Positions 53,133 through 59,244 of a stretch of DNA of 64,000 bases are shown here, in pieces (position 1 is the first letter of the stretch; every line of letters starts with the position of its first letter). The stretch comes from Jaminaea rosea. Lineage: Eukaryota > Basidiomycota > Exobasidiomycetes > Microstromatales. The position numbers were made by a program, and so were the translations under genes. The stretch is from positions 1-64,000 of the forward strand of contig NW_020289977.1 of assembly GCF_003144245.1 (NCBI RefSeq), in the 5' to 3' direction. The notes under the pieces were generated by a model. That model worked only from the letters and a program-made list of their open reading frames with translations, was not told the origin of the DNA and made no database searches.

Positions 53133-54674
53133 TCATGCCTTTCCGCTCTCCCCGCCGTTTCTCTCTTGTCGTCGTGTACTCCTCCACACCCACCTACCCC
53201 CATACCACCCAATGAGGAGGAGAGCAAAGAGCCCAACGACTCCCGCTCCAATATACCCAGAAGCGTCGCCCGCTGCGAGCCAGAAGGACCACCAGCTTCC
53301 TGCCAACCCGCCCCCACCCGCGCCTTCGTCGGGGGAGTCGTGCGCTTCAGCTGCGGCTGAGCAAGAGGTACAGCGCGATGCTATCAGGGACAGGAGGACT
53401 ATTGTGCCTATGATTAGGGCGAGGAGGATGGAGAGGGTGGTGAGGAGGAGGGAGAGGGTTGTTGTGGCTGGTGGGGGTAGAGCGTGCCCTGGGAGGGCAG
53501 GGTGGTTGGATGAGCCCGCCTTCTCCTCATCGTGCCGCTCCTGCTCCGCCATCTCGATAGGAGAGCAACTTTGCTCCGGCTGATCGGAGTTGACCACCTT
53601 TTCGACTGGCGGCGGACTGTTCGCCTCGGTATCGCCGTGCTCATCACTGCGACGCTCCTCCCACAAGGCCCACCACTTTCTCCCCTCCTCCCTCCTCGGC
53701 GGTGCATAAGCGTACACCATCAACACACTATCCACGCTATCCACGAGCGTCATTCCCGCAGTAAAAAGCAGTGCAAGCAGCACCACTTTAGCATCGCCTC
53801 CCTTCCCCCAATTCCCTGCCTCCTGCTGCGCTTCTGATCCACTCAGGTCCTCCTCTGCGCTGCTCACCCGTCGACCAGCGGCGGCAGAGATGGAGAGTAG
53901 GGCAATGGTCGATGCGGTATCGAATCCAAGACCGAAGAGGACCCCGATGGGGTAAAGGTGGTATGGTTGTGTGACGATGCGGAAGAGGGGTCCTGCAAGA
54001 CGGGTGTAGATGGTGCGTAGCCCGTGCCGTGCAGGGAGCCCTTTCTGCTCACCACCAGCAGTCCCCTCGCCCTCGCCCTCGACCTCACCCTTAATACTTT
54101 TCGCTCCTTCATCTTCTTCAACAAGAGTGGAGGGTTCTGTGCTTCCCCTCTTCTTCTTCTCCCTGCGACGACGCCGTATCGCTCTCACGAGGATGACGCT
54201 ATTGATAATCGCGACCACGATCAAGAAGCTCCCGCTCACCGCCTGCCCTACCACCCCGCCTACCCCGCTTACCCCGTCTAGTCGCGAGGCCACCGAGATG
54301 GAGATGGAGATGGCTACCGTTACTGCGACCACTATTGTCGAGTGGCCGAGGGAGAACCATAGACCTACGGTGATGGGTCTTCTCGATCCGCGCGCCGAGG
54401 ACGAGGAGCGCGGGGAGCTGGCAATGATCTTTCGCGTCGCATTATCGATGGCAGCAATATGGTCCGCATCCAAAGCGTGACGCAGACCGGTGGTCCAGGC
54501 TATCAGACATAGGCTGGCAAAGGAGTCTGAGCCGCGTGGAGGGGAAACGAGGAGCGAGGCGATCCAGAGAAGGAGGTTGGTGGCTACCAGTAGGGAGAGG
54601 AGGAGGATCGAACGAAGAAAGAGAGTCGGACGACGTCGGATACGCCAGCGTGTGGGGAGGGAAAGGGGGAGCAT
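53133..54674 (-). CDS. Nickel/cobalt transporter (NiCoT family)
   Basis: Single exon, 513 aa, starting MLPLSLPTRW. All four NiCoT signatures are present: GLRHALDADHIAAIDN in helix 2 (metal-binding H-A-x-D-A-D-H at 66-72), GLWFSLGHSTIVV, LFGLGFDTASTIALL and AGMTLVDSVDSVLMVYAY. Eight membrane helices are expected. Two cytosolic loops are enlarged: a Lys/Glu/Gly-rich one after helix 4 and an acidic one before the last pair of helices. It imports Ni2+ (or Co2+) at the plasma membrane; in fungi nickel is needed mainly for urease. An in-frame ATG 92 codons upstream exists but its extra sequence is not family-like. Head-to-head with the gene at 54956, 281 bases apart. Confidence 0.93.
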   Translation of the reverse strand: MLPLSLPTRWRIRRRPTLFLRSILLLSLLVATNLLLWIASLLVSPPRGSDSFASLCLIAWTTGLRHALDADHIAAIDNATRKIIASSPRSSSSARGSRRPITVGLWFSLGHSTIVVAVTVAISISISVASRLDGVSGVGGVVGQAVSGSFLIVVAIINSVILVRAIRRRRREKKKRGSTEPSTLVEEDEGAKSIKGEVEGEGEGTAGGEQKGLPARHGLRTIYTRLAGPLFRIVTQPYHLYPIGVLFGLGFDTASTIALLSISAAAGRRVSSAEEDLSGSEAQQEAGNWGKGGDAKVVLLALLFTAGMTLVDSVDSVLMVYAYAPPRREEGRKWWALWEERRSDEHGDTEANSPPPVEKVVNSDQPEQSCSPIEMAEQERHDEEKAGSSNHPALPGHALPPPATTTLSLLLTTLSILLALIIGTIVLLSLIASRCTSCSAAAEAHDSPDEGAGGGGLAGSWWSFWLAAGDASGYIGAGVVGLFALLLIGWYGGRWVWRSTRRQERNGGESGKA

Positions 54675-54955
54675 GCTGCGAGGCGGGAGAGAGAGGAGGT
54701 AAGAAGAGATGGGTGAGACGAGGCTGGTATTGGAAATAGTTGCATCGACTCGCCCTCCCGCCCCACATTGAGAAGGAAGGGAGCAGCGAGCGAGCGAGCG
54801 AGCAAGCCACTTATGCGAGATAAGGCGGGCGGCGACTTTTTCCTGGATCCAAAGGCCAGTCGCGCCAATTGCAATTGGCGCTGCGGGACGGACGGACAGA
54901 AGGAAAGTGCCTCCTTTTGACTTTGGCTTCGACTTTCTTTGCTTTCTCACGCCCC

Positions 54956-57511
54956 ATGTGCGGGATTCTCCTTCTCGCTAGAGAGAGAGCAACAGCGTCG
55001 TCATCGTCGTCATCGTCAACATCCTTCTCGCCAGTATGGGACTCAGGTCTAGAGGATGCATGTAAATGTCGCGGTCCACATGCTCATGATTCTCCCGAGC
55101 GGGCAAGCGGCTCCCTCTCGCTTCGATTGACAGCTTCGGTCCTCTCGCTACGAGGGGATGACTTGACGAGCCAACCCTTCGTCTCTCCAGACGAACGCTA
55201 CCTCTTTGCCTGGAATGGGCAGGTCTACTCGATCAACGAAGGTGCCGAGCGCTCAGCATGGGCGTCTGAGCGACTTGGACGAGGCGAGAACGATGGACGC
55301 ATTCTCTTCGACTGGTTCTGTGATGCTGCGCACGAGAAGGGGGTTGAGGCGGCTTTGCAGGAAGTCTTTGCCTCTTCTGCACTGCAGGATGCTGAGTGGG
55401 CTATGGTGCTCGTCGATACACATACAGGCTCCGTCTACTTCGGTAGGGATGCGCTTGGGCGACGATCACTCCTCGTCTCTCAGAAGGACGGCGAGCTCGT
55501 CCTAGCCTCTGTCGCCTCTCCAGAAGCCATCGACGTCAGTCTAGCATTCAAGGAGGTGGATTGCTCCTCCCTCTGGCAATGGCAGCTCGGCCATCTCACC
55601 ACACTTATGCCGCGCAACGCCGAACGGCTCCTCCTCTGCCCTACAGACACGTTCGCCGACCCGACAGACTCGGAGCGTCAAGCGGCCCTGGATAGTATAC
55701 AGGCTGCCCTCCTCGAGAGCGTCCGGCGCAGAGTCACTACAGTGCAAGGCGTCACAGCACAAGAGAAGGCGCCGCCCATTGCCATCCTCTTCTCCGGCGG
55801 GCTGGACTGTACCATTCTTGCCTACTTGGCGCATCAGGTCGTACCTGAGAGCCAGGGCATCGACCTCATTAATGTCGCCTTTGAGAACCCGAGGGTGCTT
55901 GCTGCGGGCAAAAAGGCTGGCTCGAACTCATCATCACCATCGGCGTCAAGCTCCTTCGACACGCCAGATCGCCTACTCAGCAGACGAAGCCTCGCGCAAC
56001 TGCAATCTCTCGCGCCGGATCGACTTTGGAACCTGGTGGAGATCGATGTCCACTATTCCTCCTACCTGGCACATAAGCCTACTATTCTCTCCATCATGCA
56101 CCCCAGCGAAAGTGTCATGGATCTCTCTCTGGCCTCTGTCCTCTACTTCGCCTCAAAAGGCTCAGAACACTCGATTGGGCCTCGCGTATACATCTCCGGC
56201 CTGGGGGCGGACGAGCTCTTCGGCGGCTACTCACGCCATCGTGGCGCCTTTGCCTCTGGCGGATGGGCTCGAGCCGTCGATGAGCTTCAGATGGATCTGG
56301 ATCGTCTCCCCACCCGCAACCTAGGGAGGGACGATCGTGCCGTCTCTTCGCATGGGCGCGAGGCACGTTACCCTTTTCTTGCGGCGCCTGTCCTCCAGCT
56401 TGCGGCAAGACTGCCCGTGAGAGTCAAGGCGGAGTGGGGTAGAGGGGAAGGGGTAGGGGACAAATTGCTACTTCGGATGTTGGCGCGCGAGAGGTTGGGG
56501 TTGGGAGAGGTGGGGAGGGAGAAGAAGAGGGCAATGCAGTTTGGGGCGAGGAGCGCTAAGATGGAGGTGGGGGCGAGTAGGGCCAAGGGACATCATAGTG
56601 TGGCGAGAGAAGCCGAGATTGAGGAAGGGGAGGGCACGGATGCCGAATGTCCCAGCGAGGTGTTTACTACACTTTGCTACGATGATAGAGGGGGCGTCAC
56701 AGTCGATGATCTGCTGAGGCCGATCATGCGCGTCAAGAATGTCAGCACGGCTGCACCAACGAAGGCCGACCTCATCACCACAACGGCCATCCAGCACCCT
56801 CTTCACGCACACATCCCCTTGCTCCTCGCCCACCTCACGCGGCTTCGCACCTCCACCCTCGCTTTGGCCCGCACCTGGCCAACACGATGGGGTCTTGCGG
56901 CCCAATCACAGTCGGTTGACGGCTGGGCAAAGGCGTCCCTCGATCACCTTGCGTCAGAGCTTGCCAAAGGTTCTGGAGAGAAACGGCGCGTTCGCTGGTC
57001 TGTAGGCCGTGAGGGGCAACGCAAGGTGGTGCAGGCGAGCATGGCCCCTCCAGCAGCTGAGCCGCTCCTTGTGCGTCTTGACAACCAGACAACGTCGATC
57101 ACACGCGAGGAGCTCCTGGTCAACAAGACGGACCGACGCAGCATGTACGATGAAGCGCGTGCTCGTGTCAATGCCACTCTGGGCATGCCTTCCTCCGCTG
57201 ACGCTGAGAAGCAACCCGTCTTCGACGTCCTTCTCTGGACACGGTGCGACGGTAAGCGTCTCCTCACGGAATCTTCCATCGCGAATGTCGTCCTACAGCG
57301 GAACGATGGGCAGCTCGTCACGCCCAAACTGAGAGTAAAGGAGGGGGTGGCTTTCCTTCCTGGTCTGATGAGGGAGGAGGCGCTCAGGAGGGGACTGGTG
57401 GTGGAGGAGGGTATTGAGATTGATGATGATGAGGAGCTTCTGAGCGGAGGGGTAAAGATCTGGCTCTGTAATGCATTAAGAGGATTCTTTGAGGTGAGAC
57501 TCGTACCATAG
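54956..57511 (+). CDS. Asparagine-synthetase-like (ASNSD1) / aminodeoxychorismate-lyase-like fusion
   Basis: Single exon, 851 aa. The start at 54956 gives MCGILL, exposing the Cys2 nucleophile of class II glutamine amidotransferases; an upstream ATG is rejected for this reason. Residues 1-230 are the amidotransferase domain (FAWNGQVY, GRDALGRRSLL). Residues about 270-560 are the synthetase-like PP-loop ATPase (LFSGGLDCTILAYLA, GLGADELFGGYSRHRG), with the insertions typical of ASNSD1/YML096W rather than true asparagine synthetase. Residues about 565-851 are PLP fold-type IV like 4-amino-4-deoxychorismate lyase: FTTLCYD, VNKTDRRSMYDEAR (likely PLP Lys724), RLLTESSIANVV, VTPKL...GVAFLPGLMREEAL and VKIWLCNALRGF. 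The frame is continuous through the junction. Confidence 0.85.
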   Translation: MCGILLLARERATASSSSSSSTSFSPVWDSGLEDACKCRGPHAHDSPERASGSLSLRLTASVLSLRGDDLTSQPFVSPDERYLFAWNGQVYSINEGAERSAWASERLGRGENDGRILFDWFCDAAHEKGVEAALQEVFASSALQDAEWAMVLVDTHTGSVYFGRDALGRRSLLVSQKDGELVLASVASPEAIDVSLAFKEVDCSSLWQWQLGHLTTLMPRNAERLLLCPTDTFADPTDSERQAALDSIQAALLESVRRRVTTVQGVTAQEKAPPIAILFSGGLDCTILAYLAHQVVPESQGIDLINVAFENPRVLAAGKKAGSNSSSPSASSSFDTPDRLLSRRSLAQLQSLAPDRLWNLVEIDVHYSSYLAHKPTILSIMHPSESVMDLSLASVLYFASKGSEHSIGPRVYISGLGADELFGGYSRHRGAFASGGWARAVDELQMDLDRLPTRNLGRDDRAVSSHGREARYPFLAAPVLQLAARLPVRVKAEWGRGEGVGDKLLLRMLARERLGLGEVGREKKRAMQFGARSAKMEVGASRAKGHHSVAREAEIEEGEGTDAECPSEVFTTLCYDDRGGVTVDDLLRPIMRVKNVSTAAPTKADLITTTAIQHPLHAHIPLLLAHLTRLRTSTLALARTWPTRWGLAAQSQSVDGWAKASLDHLASELAKGSGEKRRVRWSVGREGQRKVVQASMAPPAAEPLLVRLDNQTTSITREELLVNKTDRRSMYDEARARVNATLGMPSSADAEKQPVFDVLLWTRCDGKRLLTESSIANVVLQRNDGQLVTPKLRVKEGVAFLPGLMREEALRRGLVVEEGIEIDDDEELLSGGVKIWLCNALRGFFEVRLVP

Positions 57512-57694
57512 AAGCAATTGTACCACCATGGCATCGCAAAGTATCTTTGGCGCGCTTTCGCCCCCATCGCCTCCACAGCTCAGTCCGCCATTCGCTTCTG
57601 CCCTTTGTCTTCACTCTCTCGACACCGGCTCCTCAACAGCGCAAGCCAAGCCAAGCCGAGCCAAGCTAGGAGAGCTCAAATAGGCAGAAAAGGA

Positions 57695-59244
57695 ATGCAA
57701 CAAGACTCAGGCGTACCCACGCTCGACTCGCTTCGCAATCTCCTCCCGACCACCTTTGCCGGTGGCCAAGCAGGACAGCAGCTGCAAAGCGTCGAATCCC
57801 TCGCCCGCCTCTGGGCAGGCTATGGATGGATCCTGCGACTACACTTCGTGGCAGATGAAAGCGAGGTACCTCCTACCGCCATCCTCAAGTATGTGGATGT
57901 CGCTGGTGCCATCACAGCGGATGCGGGTCATGCTGGGCATGGGCACGGGCATCAAGGGCTAGACGAAGGCACAACGCGCAAGCTGGCCTCGTATCGCGTA
58001 GAGGCCAATTACTACCAATACCTCTCGTCCCTCTTTAATGAGCCCTCTGGCTCCTCCTCCTCCTCCCTTGCGCCAACATGGCGCCCCTTCGCCTCCGTGC
58101 CGCGCTTCCTCGGCCCTTGCCAGCCTTCAACCGAGCGAGCGCCATTACTGCTCCTCCTCGAGGACGTGCAGCCCACTCATCCAGTGATGGGCATAAAGCC
58201 CACGGAGATGACGTGGGGACAATGTCTTGCAGCTTTAAATTGGTTTGCAGGGTTTAATGCTTGCTATTGGGGGCTTGATGAGGGGCAGGCTGAGATGTGT
58301 CCCCCACCGAGGGAGTTGATGGCCGCTACTCGGGGTCGTGCTGAGCGTGGCGGGGAGCCGTGGAGTGGAAAAGGGGTTTGGCAGTATGGCACGTACAAGT
58401 GAGTGATCGGAAAAGCGTTACGATCCTCATAGCGAAGGGACGGCTCACCACTCTTTGGCCGTGCGGATCCTACAGCTATCTCTCCACTCGACTCGACGAG
58501 CTCAAGCGCATTCCTGCCTCCTCGCCCTTCGCTGAGTTGCGTGGTCCGCTAGCTTTTGCGGTCGAGTGGCTGCTTTTGGAGGGAGATAGACGAGGGGATA
58601 AGACGAGATCAGGCAGGACACTCGTACACGGCGATGCTAAGCTGGCGAATATGGCGTTTGCGCCTAGTGACGAAGACGGCGACGAGGCGTGGCACGAGGC
58701 AGCCTCAGCCGCTGCCGCTGCGACTCAAGTATCTACCTCGACCTCCTCCTCACACCCTCCGAGCCGGTATCACGTTAGCACCTATGATTTCCAGTACGTT
58801 GGGCTGGGCATAGGCGTGCAGGACCTCGTCAAGTTCATTACGGTTGCCGTGCCCGTCGAGTGGCTGTGGCAGGAGAGGCGGAGCACGACTACTGAGGAGC
58901 AGGGCAAGGAGGTCGAAGCGCTAAGCAAGGGAGAAGAGGGATTGCTGCGCTTCTACTATACCCGCCTTACAACCCATCTGCAAAGTAGAAGCCTTTCGCC
59001 TGACTACACATTCCCGCAGCTCCTCGCCGACTGGGACCTCGCCCTCATAGCCTGGCTGCGCTTCACTGAGGGCTGGGTGAACCCAGTCGCCGCCAAGAAT
59101 GAGAAGAAGGACCACAAGGCACAGTGGCTCACACGTCGAGGCTTGGAGATACTCAACCGTTCGGGCTGGAAGGAGAGTGTGCTGCAGAGGTGGGAGAAGG
59201 CGGGCAAGCCAGGTGGTGAGATGCTCGACGAACTGTCGCTATAG
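57695..59244 (+). CDS. APH/CHK-like small-molecule kinase
   Basis: Exons 57695-58398 and 58476-59244, 490 aa; 77-base intron, joining YGTY-NYLSTRLDE. Protein-kinase-like fold of the aminoglycoside phosphotransferase/ecdysteroid-kinase-like group: TAILKYVDVAG with the ATP-binding Lys, LLLLLEDVQPTHP (hinge), TLVHGDAKLANM (Brenner motif H-G-D-x-K-x-x-N at about 285) and STYDFQYVGLGIGVQDLVKFI (DFG-equivalent D-F-Q). A Ser/Thr-rich insert of about 40 residues lies between the last two motifs. The substrate (choline-like, sugar or secondary metabolite) is unknown. The start at 57695 follows a region with poor coding character; an earlier in-frame ATG at 57518 is possible but gives a non-family leader. 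Confidence 0.78.

What the first reader, a model, noticed from the sequence alone, without database searches (positions are those of the whole stretch)
54956..57511. Single-frame fusion of an ASNSD1-like amidotransferase/ligase with a PLP fold-IV (aminodeoxychorismate-lyase-like) enzyme
The 851-codon exon has MCGI (class II amidotransferase), SGGLD and GADELFGG (PP-loop) and then the fold-IV landmarks including a plausible PLP lysine. ASNSD1 proteins are poorly understood. Joining one to an enzyme that in folate synthesis follows a glutamine-dependent step suggests a shared ammonia- or amino-group pathway (p-aminobenzoate-like chemistry). I do not know this architecture as a described one.
Basis: partly seen in the sequence, partly recalled or inferred. 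Interest (0 to 1): 0.75.

Follow-up and report, generated by a model that had tools for sequence, protein, structure and literature searches.

The report
ASNSD1–PABA lyase fusion gene
A gene that appears to come from a fungus seems to join two enzymes usually made separately, a poorly understood relative of asparagine synthetase and the enzyme that makes p-aminobenzoate for folate, which may be a hint about what the poorly understood one does.

Summary
Window 54956-57511 (+) is one open frame of 851 codons with a class II amidotransferase, an Asn_synthase PP-loop domain and an Aminotran_4 domain, all above Pfam cut-offs. ASNSD1 homology, judged against a human sequence recalled from memory, ends at codon 537. 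The lyase domain starts at about 566. No stop and no in-frame ATG lie between.
The second half is probably a real aminodeoxychorismate lyase (ADCL). It keeps PLP lysine K724 and 15 further columns invariant in 80 bacterial relatives, and differs at 2 invariant ones. In 79 of 80 loci a pabB-like sequence is present. After 3QQM, the best structural match is yeast ADCL 4K6N.
The first half is not a canonical asparagine synthetase: the essential glutamate (human Glu-364) is leucine (L416).
So the architecture is supported, but the proposed shared ammonia chemistry is not. ADCL uses no ammonia, and ASNSD1 also occurs in animals that make no PABA (recalled). A tethered bifunctional protein is more likely, with a weak "Rosetta-stone" hint for orphan ASNSD1.
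No eukaryotic collection could be searched, so conservation of the fusion is untested.

The parts
54956..57511 (+). Fusion coding sequence, 851 codons plus stop, no intron needed
   Evidence: open frame; Pfam domains
54956..55513 (+). Class II glutamine amidotransferase domain (codons 1-186); Cys2, N87, G88, D113 kept; AsnB R49 is V62 and E76 is Q89
55664..56566 (+). Asn_synthase-type PP-loop domain (codons 237-537)
   Evidence: Pfam; blastp with recalled human ASNSD1
55793..55807 (+). PP-loop SGGLD (codons 280-284)
56195..56227 (+). SGLGADELFGG (codons 414-424); L416 replaces AsnB Glu348 / human ASNS Glu-364
56525..56566 (+). KRAMQFGARSAKME (codons 524-537), last block shared with the recalled human ASNSD1
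56567..56650 (+). Linker (codons 538-565): no stop, no in-frame ATG
56651..57508 (+). Aminodeoxychorismate-lyase-like fold IV PLP domain (codons 566-851)
56657..56680 (+). Proposed first strand EVFTTLCY (codons 568-575) with T572 as the catalytic threonine; the rival is codons 606-612
   Evidence: for; 30, 50 against
56831..56842 (+). H626 and R629 (proposed PaPabC His43 and Arg46, PLP phosphate site)
   Evidence: 80 of 80; PMC3174152 passages
57125..57127 (+). PLP lysine K724
   Evidence: 80 of 80
57269..57271 (+). E772, proposed glutamate to the PLP ring nitrogen
   Evidence: 80 of 80; PMC3174152 passages

Best explanation
One gene, probably fungal, makes a bifunctional protein. The C-terminal domain (codons 566-851) is an aminodeoxychorismate lyase: PLP bound to K724 takes 4-amino-4-deoxychorismate and releases pyruvate and p-aminobenzoate for folate. 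The N-terminal part (codons 1-537) is an ASNSD1 protein: a Cys2 glutaminase-type domain plus an ATP-binding PP-loop domain that probably adenylates an unknown acid. It is not an asparagine synthetase, because the catalytic glutamate is leucine. The two formerly separate genes were joined through a linker of about 28 codons. The most likely effect is co-expression and physical tethering, not passage of ammonia between the sites. Shown: one frame, the domains, the active-site residues, and the pabB context of the lyase's bacterial relatives. Inferred: transcription as one mRNA, both activities, the origin by joining, the purpose of the tether.
For: Single open frame and Pfam domains. Codon signal stays in frame 0 over the junction and no separate start is available for the lyase. 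Of 18 columns invariant in the 80 bacterial relatives kept, 16 are the same in the window: H626, R629, G687, K724, T725, R728, Y731, E772, I775, T789, P790, L801, G803, R806, N839, R842. A pabB-like sequence lies in 79 of the 80 loci: 36 of 36 with a lyase ORF of 330 aa or more, 43 of 44 with a shorter one; Pfam finds Chorismate_bind inside 34 of the 80 ORFs. The highest-ranked structure after 3QQM is yeast ADCL 4K6N for both models. L416 replaces the essential Glu. blastp against recalled human ASNSD1: 192 bits, 3e-56, ending at codon 537.
Against: No transcript data. No eukaryotic relative could be fetched, so conservation of the fusion is unknown. Two columns invariant in the 80 relatives differ here: E608 is T and G799 is A in that alignment. 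The lyase's first strand is disputed between two segments (against 33, 53, 70). Similarity to an ADCL of known activity is remote (4K6N phmmer E 0.068; Foldseek 17-18% identity). The closest solved structure, 3QQM, is titled a putative amino-acid aminotransferase, and transaminases of the same fold fill much of both Foldseek lists. NCBIfam PRK07546 models match far below their cut-offs (45.8 against 223 bits). Two glutaminase positions, Arg49 and Glu76 of AsnB, are changed, so that site may not work.
Confidence: 0.75

Rival explanations
1. Two adjacent genes that only look fused: an unrecognised intron, an alternative transcript end, or a sequence error in the linker separates ASNSD1 from the lyase.
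For: The linker is short; four 5'-splice-like and several YAG sites lie in 56500-56800; an open frame of this length is not rare here (frame 1 is also open over it). Another ORF of the window matches only the first part of its Pfam model (FMN_dh), which suggests that this genome has introns.
Against: Frame 0 codon preference persists through the linker. The scan for CTRAY branch-like sites in 56500-56800 printed none. The in-frame ATGs that could start the lyase lie inside the ASNSD1 C-terminal motif or after the lyase's proposed first strand.
Confidence: 0.1
2. The C-terminal domain is a fold IV transaminase (branched-chain or D-amino acid type), not a lyase.
For: Foldseek matches many BCAT and D-amino acid transaminases below 4K6N, and 3QQM itself is titled a putative aminotransferase. 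Pfam Aminotran_4 does not separate them. PMC8105722 describes one enzyme with both activities (start of abstract only).
Against: The nearest bacterial relatives lie with a pabB-like sequence in 79 of 80 loci. The first structure after 3QQM is yeast ADCL 4K6N in both lists.
Confidence: 0.12
3. One reading: the amidotransferase half supplies ammonia or an amino group to chemistry completed by the lyase half (PABA-like pathway).
For: The two are on one chain; Cys2 and the glutaminase residues N87, G88 and D113 are kept.
Against: ADCL needs no ammonia. The residue that asparagine synthetase needs for amidation is missing, and two glutaminase residues are changed. ASNSD1 occurs in animals without PABA synthesis (recalled). 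0 of 80 bacterial lyase loci hold an asparagine-synthase-like sequence at 1e-5.
Confidence: 0.06

Closest known systems
ASNSD1 (asparagine synthetase domain-containing protein 1; yeast YML096W, names recalled)
   Same: MCGI start, PP-loop SGG(I/L)D, GYSRHR, NLGRDDR, terminal KRAMQFG.R.AKME; 36% identity over 237-537 to the recalled human sequence
   Different: Here a lyase domain stands where the human protein has a short C-terminal tail
Yeast ABZ2, aminodeoxychorismate lyase (PDB 4K6N)
   Same: Fold, PLP lysine motif KT.R..Y..AR.R, E.SI.NV motif, proposed first-strand motif EV..T..YD
   Different: 4K6N is a 383-residue chain without a synthase domain and has a longer insertion after the strand
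Bacterial PRK07546-type lyase-like proteins such as Mlr3007 (PDB 3QQM), and PabB-lyase fusions
   Same: 16 of the 18 columns invariant in 80 relatives
   Different: In relatives fused to or beside PabB; no asparagine-synthase-like sequence in the 80 loci; E608 and G799 differ in the window
Asparagine synthetase B / human ASNS
   Same: Cys2 glutaminase and PP-loop architecture
   Different: Glu348 (human Glu-364) is L416, Arg49 is V62, Glu76 is Q89; TIGR01536 score 93 against cut-off 267.1

Membership tests
Aminodeoxychorismate lyase (PabC/ABZ2) | Fold IV PLP domain (Aminotran_4) | tested here: met
   Pfam 46.6 bits against cut-off 28.5; Foldseek to 3QQM and 4K6N
Aminodeoxychorismate lyase (PabC/ABZ2) | PLP lysine, His43, Arg46, Gly199, Arg202 of PaPabC | tested here: met
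   K724, H626, R629, G803, R806; same in 80 of 80 relatives. Equivalence to PaPabC numbering is inferred from order and spacing, not from a direct alignment
Aminodeoxychorismate lyase (PabC/ABZ2) | Phe27 and catalytic Thr29 on the first strand | tested here: inconclusive
   F570-T571-T572 or I607-T608-T609; a threonine is present either way
Aminodeoxychorismate lyase (PabC/ABZ2) | Converts aminodeoxychorismate to PABA and pyruvate | not testable with these tools
   needs an assay; relatives lie with a pabB-like sequence in 79 of 80 loci
ASNSD1 | Class II glutaminase start (MC) plus PP-loop domain | tested here: met
ASNSD1 | Family-specific sequence incl. NLGRDDR and KRAMQFG.R.AKME | tested here: inconclusive
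Asparagine synthetase (AsnB/ASNS) | Catalytic Glu348 (human Glu-364) | tested here: not met
   L416; E364A and E364Q inactive in PMC6748925 (passages)
Asparagine synthetase (AsnB/ASNS) | NCBIfam equivalog score TIGR01536 | tested here: not met
   93 bits against 267.1

The most novel reading that the evidence does not exclude
The fusion is conserved in a fungal lineage and reflects a real functional link: ASNSD1, an enzyme without an assigned reaction, acts on a PABA-, chorismate- or folate-related acid, so the fusion names the pathway of an orphan protein that is shared with humans.
Probability: 0.13. Interest if true: 0.75.

Novelty: new variant of a known kind. Interest (0 to 1): 0.42.

Why it matters
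ASNSD1 is, to my knowledge, an orphan amidotransferase-like protein. A fusion partner with a known reaction is a rare clue to its role, and it can be tested by splitting and deleting the halves in a harmless model fungus. It would also show where this fungus keeps a PABA-forming lyase, which is easily missed because it is short, divergent and here hidden in a gene that would be annotated as asparagine synthase.

Tried and rejected
Searches for relatives of the fusion: viral contigs with the whole protein (16 stretches matched a pattern, 0 relatives), with the lyase half (17 matched, 0), with an 84-residue piece of the ASNSD1 part (9 matched, 0), and by DNA pattern for KRAMQFG (2 stretches, L146 and L147; no relative by tblastn, best E 3.2); plasmids by tblastn (no match). 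No genome is held for the window. In 120 genomes of the phylum of G001, G001 itself included, 6 had a match at 1e-6; 3 matched only the lyase half and 3 only the synthase half, none both. In 4 genomes reached through loci, each had one match, to the lyase half.

An all-in-one alignment of both halves for folding (A5) was dropped, because 83-97 residues of each lyase row were laid on the synthase half. The model from A4 (pLDDT 75.7, pTM 0.76) put the first strand at 606-612, but its alignment placed the bacterial strand there. A second alignment with no rows over codons 542-619 (A6) gave a strand at 568-575, with low local confidence (blocks 46 and 56). Against my choice: that second model is worse overall (pLDDT 71.7, pTM 0.71) and its Foldseek matches are weaker (3QQM 8.3e-11 and 4K6N 5.3e-10, against 1.5e-13 and 6.4e-12), though it also had fewer rows. 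Spacing to H626 favours 606-612 (17 residues, near the bacterial value, against 54). MAFFT of the window with ABZ2 laid EVFTT on another ABZ2 segment. For my choice, the block scores are only moderate: PSSM 4.19 (565-577) against -0.92, shuffle p 0.057; BLOSUM 17 against 0, 132 of 5000 shuffles reaching it.

Considered and rejected: that L416 marks a specific ASNSD1 clade. 7 of 29 full-length viral relatives share L416 and V62, but at 20.8-22.2% identity they are no closer to the window than the others, 18.2-24.4%.

Paper searches: ASNSD1 with aminodeoxychorismate lyase, 0 papers; 12 of 12 listed; 8 of 8; 10 of 10; 25 of 306; 12 of 12,490; 12 of 1,481; 12 of 76; the search was for the asparagine synthetase mechanism. 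No listed title or abstract start describes the fusion; the unlisted ones were not seen. PMC4224340 was searched for five terms (aminodeoxychorismate, pabC, p-aminobenzo, Basidiomycot, Ustilago), no hit. The library holds open-licence PMC papers only.

Full report
Observation. The frame 54956-57511 (+) encodes 851 aa starting MCGI. Pfam reports GATase_6 (67-185, E 1.2e-8), Asn_synthase (272-431, 4.4e-17) and Aminotran_4 (617-849, 4.9e-12), all above gathering scores. NCBIfam gives TIGR01536 below its cut-off (93 against 267.1 bits) and PRK07546 models for the second half, also far below their cut-offs (best 45.8 against 223). The neighbours are eukaryotic (Zds_C and Med4; Saf4/Yju2; eIF4G and Ceramidase). 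Zds_C and several long single-exon genes point to an intron-poor fungus, perhaps a basidiomycete (recalled knowledge, inference; no call identified the organism).

Junction. Frame 0 has no stop until 57509. Codon preference is positive in frame 0 and negative in both other frames in the windows over the linker (reference ORFs assumed coding). The open linker alone is weak evidence, because frame 1 is also open from 56454 to 56715. More telling: the block KRAMQFGARSAKME (524-537) ends the homology to human ASNSD1 (sequence recalled; blastp 192 bits, 3e-56); no stop follows it; and the lyase has no ATG between codon 536 and its proposed first strand. A two-gene model would need a lyase start inside the ASNSD1 motif, and a splice event for which the scan printed no CTRAY branch-like site, although splice-like GT and AG sites exist.

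Second half. The best solved relatives by sequence are 3QQM (1.3e-6) and, weakly, yeast ADCL 4K6N (0.068). A scan of genome contigs with a two-row alignment gave 135 relatives, of which the best 80 were kept. In those 80, 18 columns are invariant; the window agrees at 16, among them K724, E772, H626, R629, G803, R806 and N839, and differs at 2, E608 (T) and G799 (A). PMC3174152 (passages) lists seven residues strictly conserved in the four PabC enzymes compared there: Phe27, Thr29, His43, Arg46, Lys140, Gly199, Arg202. Five have clear counterparts here; Phe27 and Thr29 have two candidate segments. The same paper notes Glu28 replaced by threonine in E. coli and T. thermophilus, as here. A pabB-like sequence lies in 79 of the 80 loci: 36 of 36 with a lyase ORF of 330 aa or more, 43 of 44 with a shorter one, in these just upstream of or overlapping the ORF. 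Pfam finds Chorismate_bind inside 34 of the 80 ORFs. The pabB queries came from these same loci, and the 80 are the best-scoring ones, not a random sample. No asparagine-synthase-like sequence was found in the 80 loci at 1e-5.

First strand of the lyase. The alignment-driven choice is 606-612, with near-bacterial spacing to H626. The alternative, EVFTTLCY at 568-575, fits the bacterial strand profile better (4.19 against -0.92; p 0.057), resembles yeast FEVLATFRYDP (17 against 0; 132 of 5000 shuffles), and is the strand AlphaFold2 chose when the alignment said nothing about codons 542-619 (low local confidence, and a weaker model overall). I prefer the second, with an insertion before H626, but it is not settled. 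4K6N is rank 5 for both models, after four chains of 3QQM (TM by query 0.50 and 0.54); transaminases follow.

First half. Against 29 full-length AsnB-like proteins from viral contigs (redundant rows not removed), Cys2, N87, G88, D113, S280, G282, D284, D419 and E420 keep the common residue. Arg49 (R in 22 of 29) is V62, Glu76 (29 of 29) is Q89 and Glu348 (22 of 29) is L416. In human ASNS the corresponding Glu-364 is required: E364A and E364Q are inactive with ammonium as nitrogen source (PMC6748925, passages). So asparagine synthesis by the known mechanism is unlikely. Whether the glutaminase works is open, since two positions of its hydrogen-bond network are changed. The ATP site looks usable, with an unknown acceptor.

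Mechanism. Most likely a tethered bifunctional protein: PABA formation by the C-terminal half and an unknown ATP- and perhaps glutamine-dependent reaction by the N-terminal half. Ammonia sharing is unlikely, because the lyase uses none and because ASNSD1 is found in animals that do not make PABA (recalled). A functional link remains possible and is the most novel reading.

Novelty. Both halves are known families. I found no description of their joining in the listed results, but the long result lists were capped, only titles and abstract starts were seen, the library holds open-licence papers only, and no eukaryotic sequence collection was available. I file it as a new variant of a known kind (a domain architecture new to me).

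Noticed in passing
L092, L093, L095, L096, L097, L098, L100, L105, L117, L119, L120, L133: Twelve viral-contig ORFs of 251-264 codons (counted from stop to stop) hold a PP-loop domain with SGLGADELFGGY. Their length leaves no room for an N-terminal glutaminase, so they may ligate with a nucleophile other than glutamine-derived ammonia (inference).
   Followed up: partly
L090, L094, L107, L108, L111, L118, L123: Seven full-length viral AsnB-like proteins carry L at the Glu348 position and V at the Arg49 position, the same two substitutions as the window protein (TGLGADE in the five printed), at only 20.8-22.2% identity.
   Followed up: partly
window 53133-54950 (-): NicO nickel-transport-like gene, divergent from the fusion; its true start is unknown, so the length of the shared upstream region is too.
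   Followed up: no
window 57518-59244 (+): Two overlapping ORFs just downstream may be one gene with an intron or frame change; the second has only a sub-threshold EcKL match (E 0.072), the first none.
   Followed up: no
bacterial loci L001-L080: 34 of 80 ORFs that hold a PRK07546-type lyase domain also hold Chorismate_bind (PabB) in the same ORF (which does not name the members); ORFs of about 570-630 aa occur in Kiritimatiellia, Thermoflexales, Verrucomicrobia and other records.
   Followed up: partly
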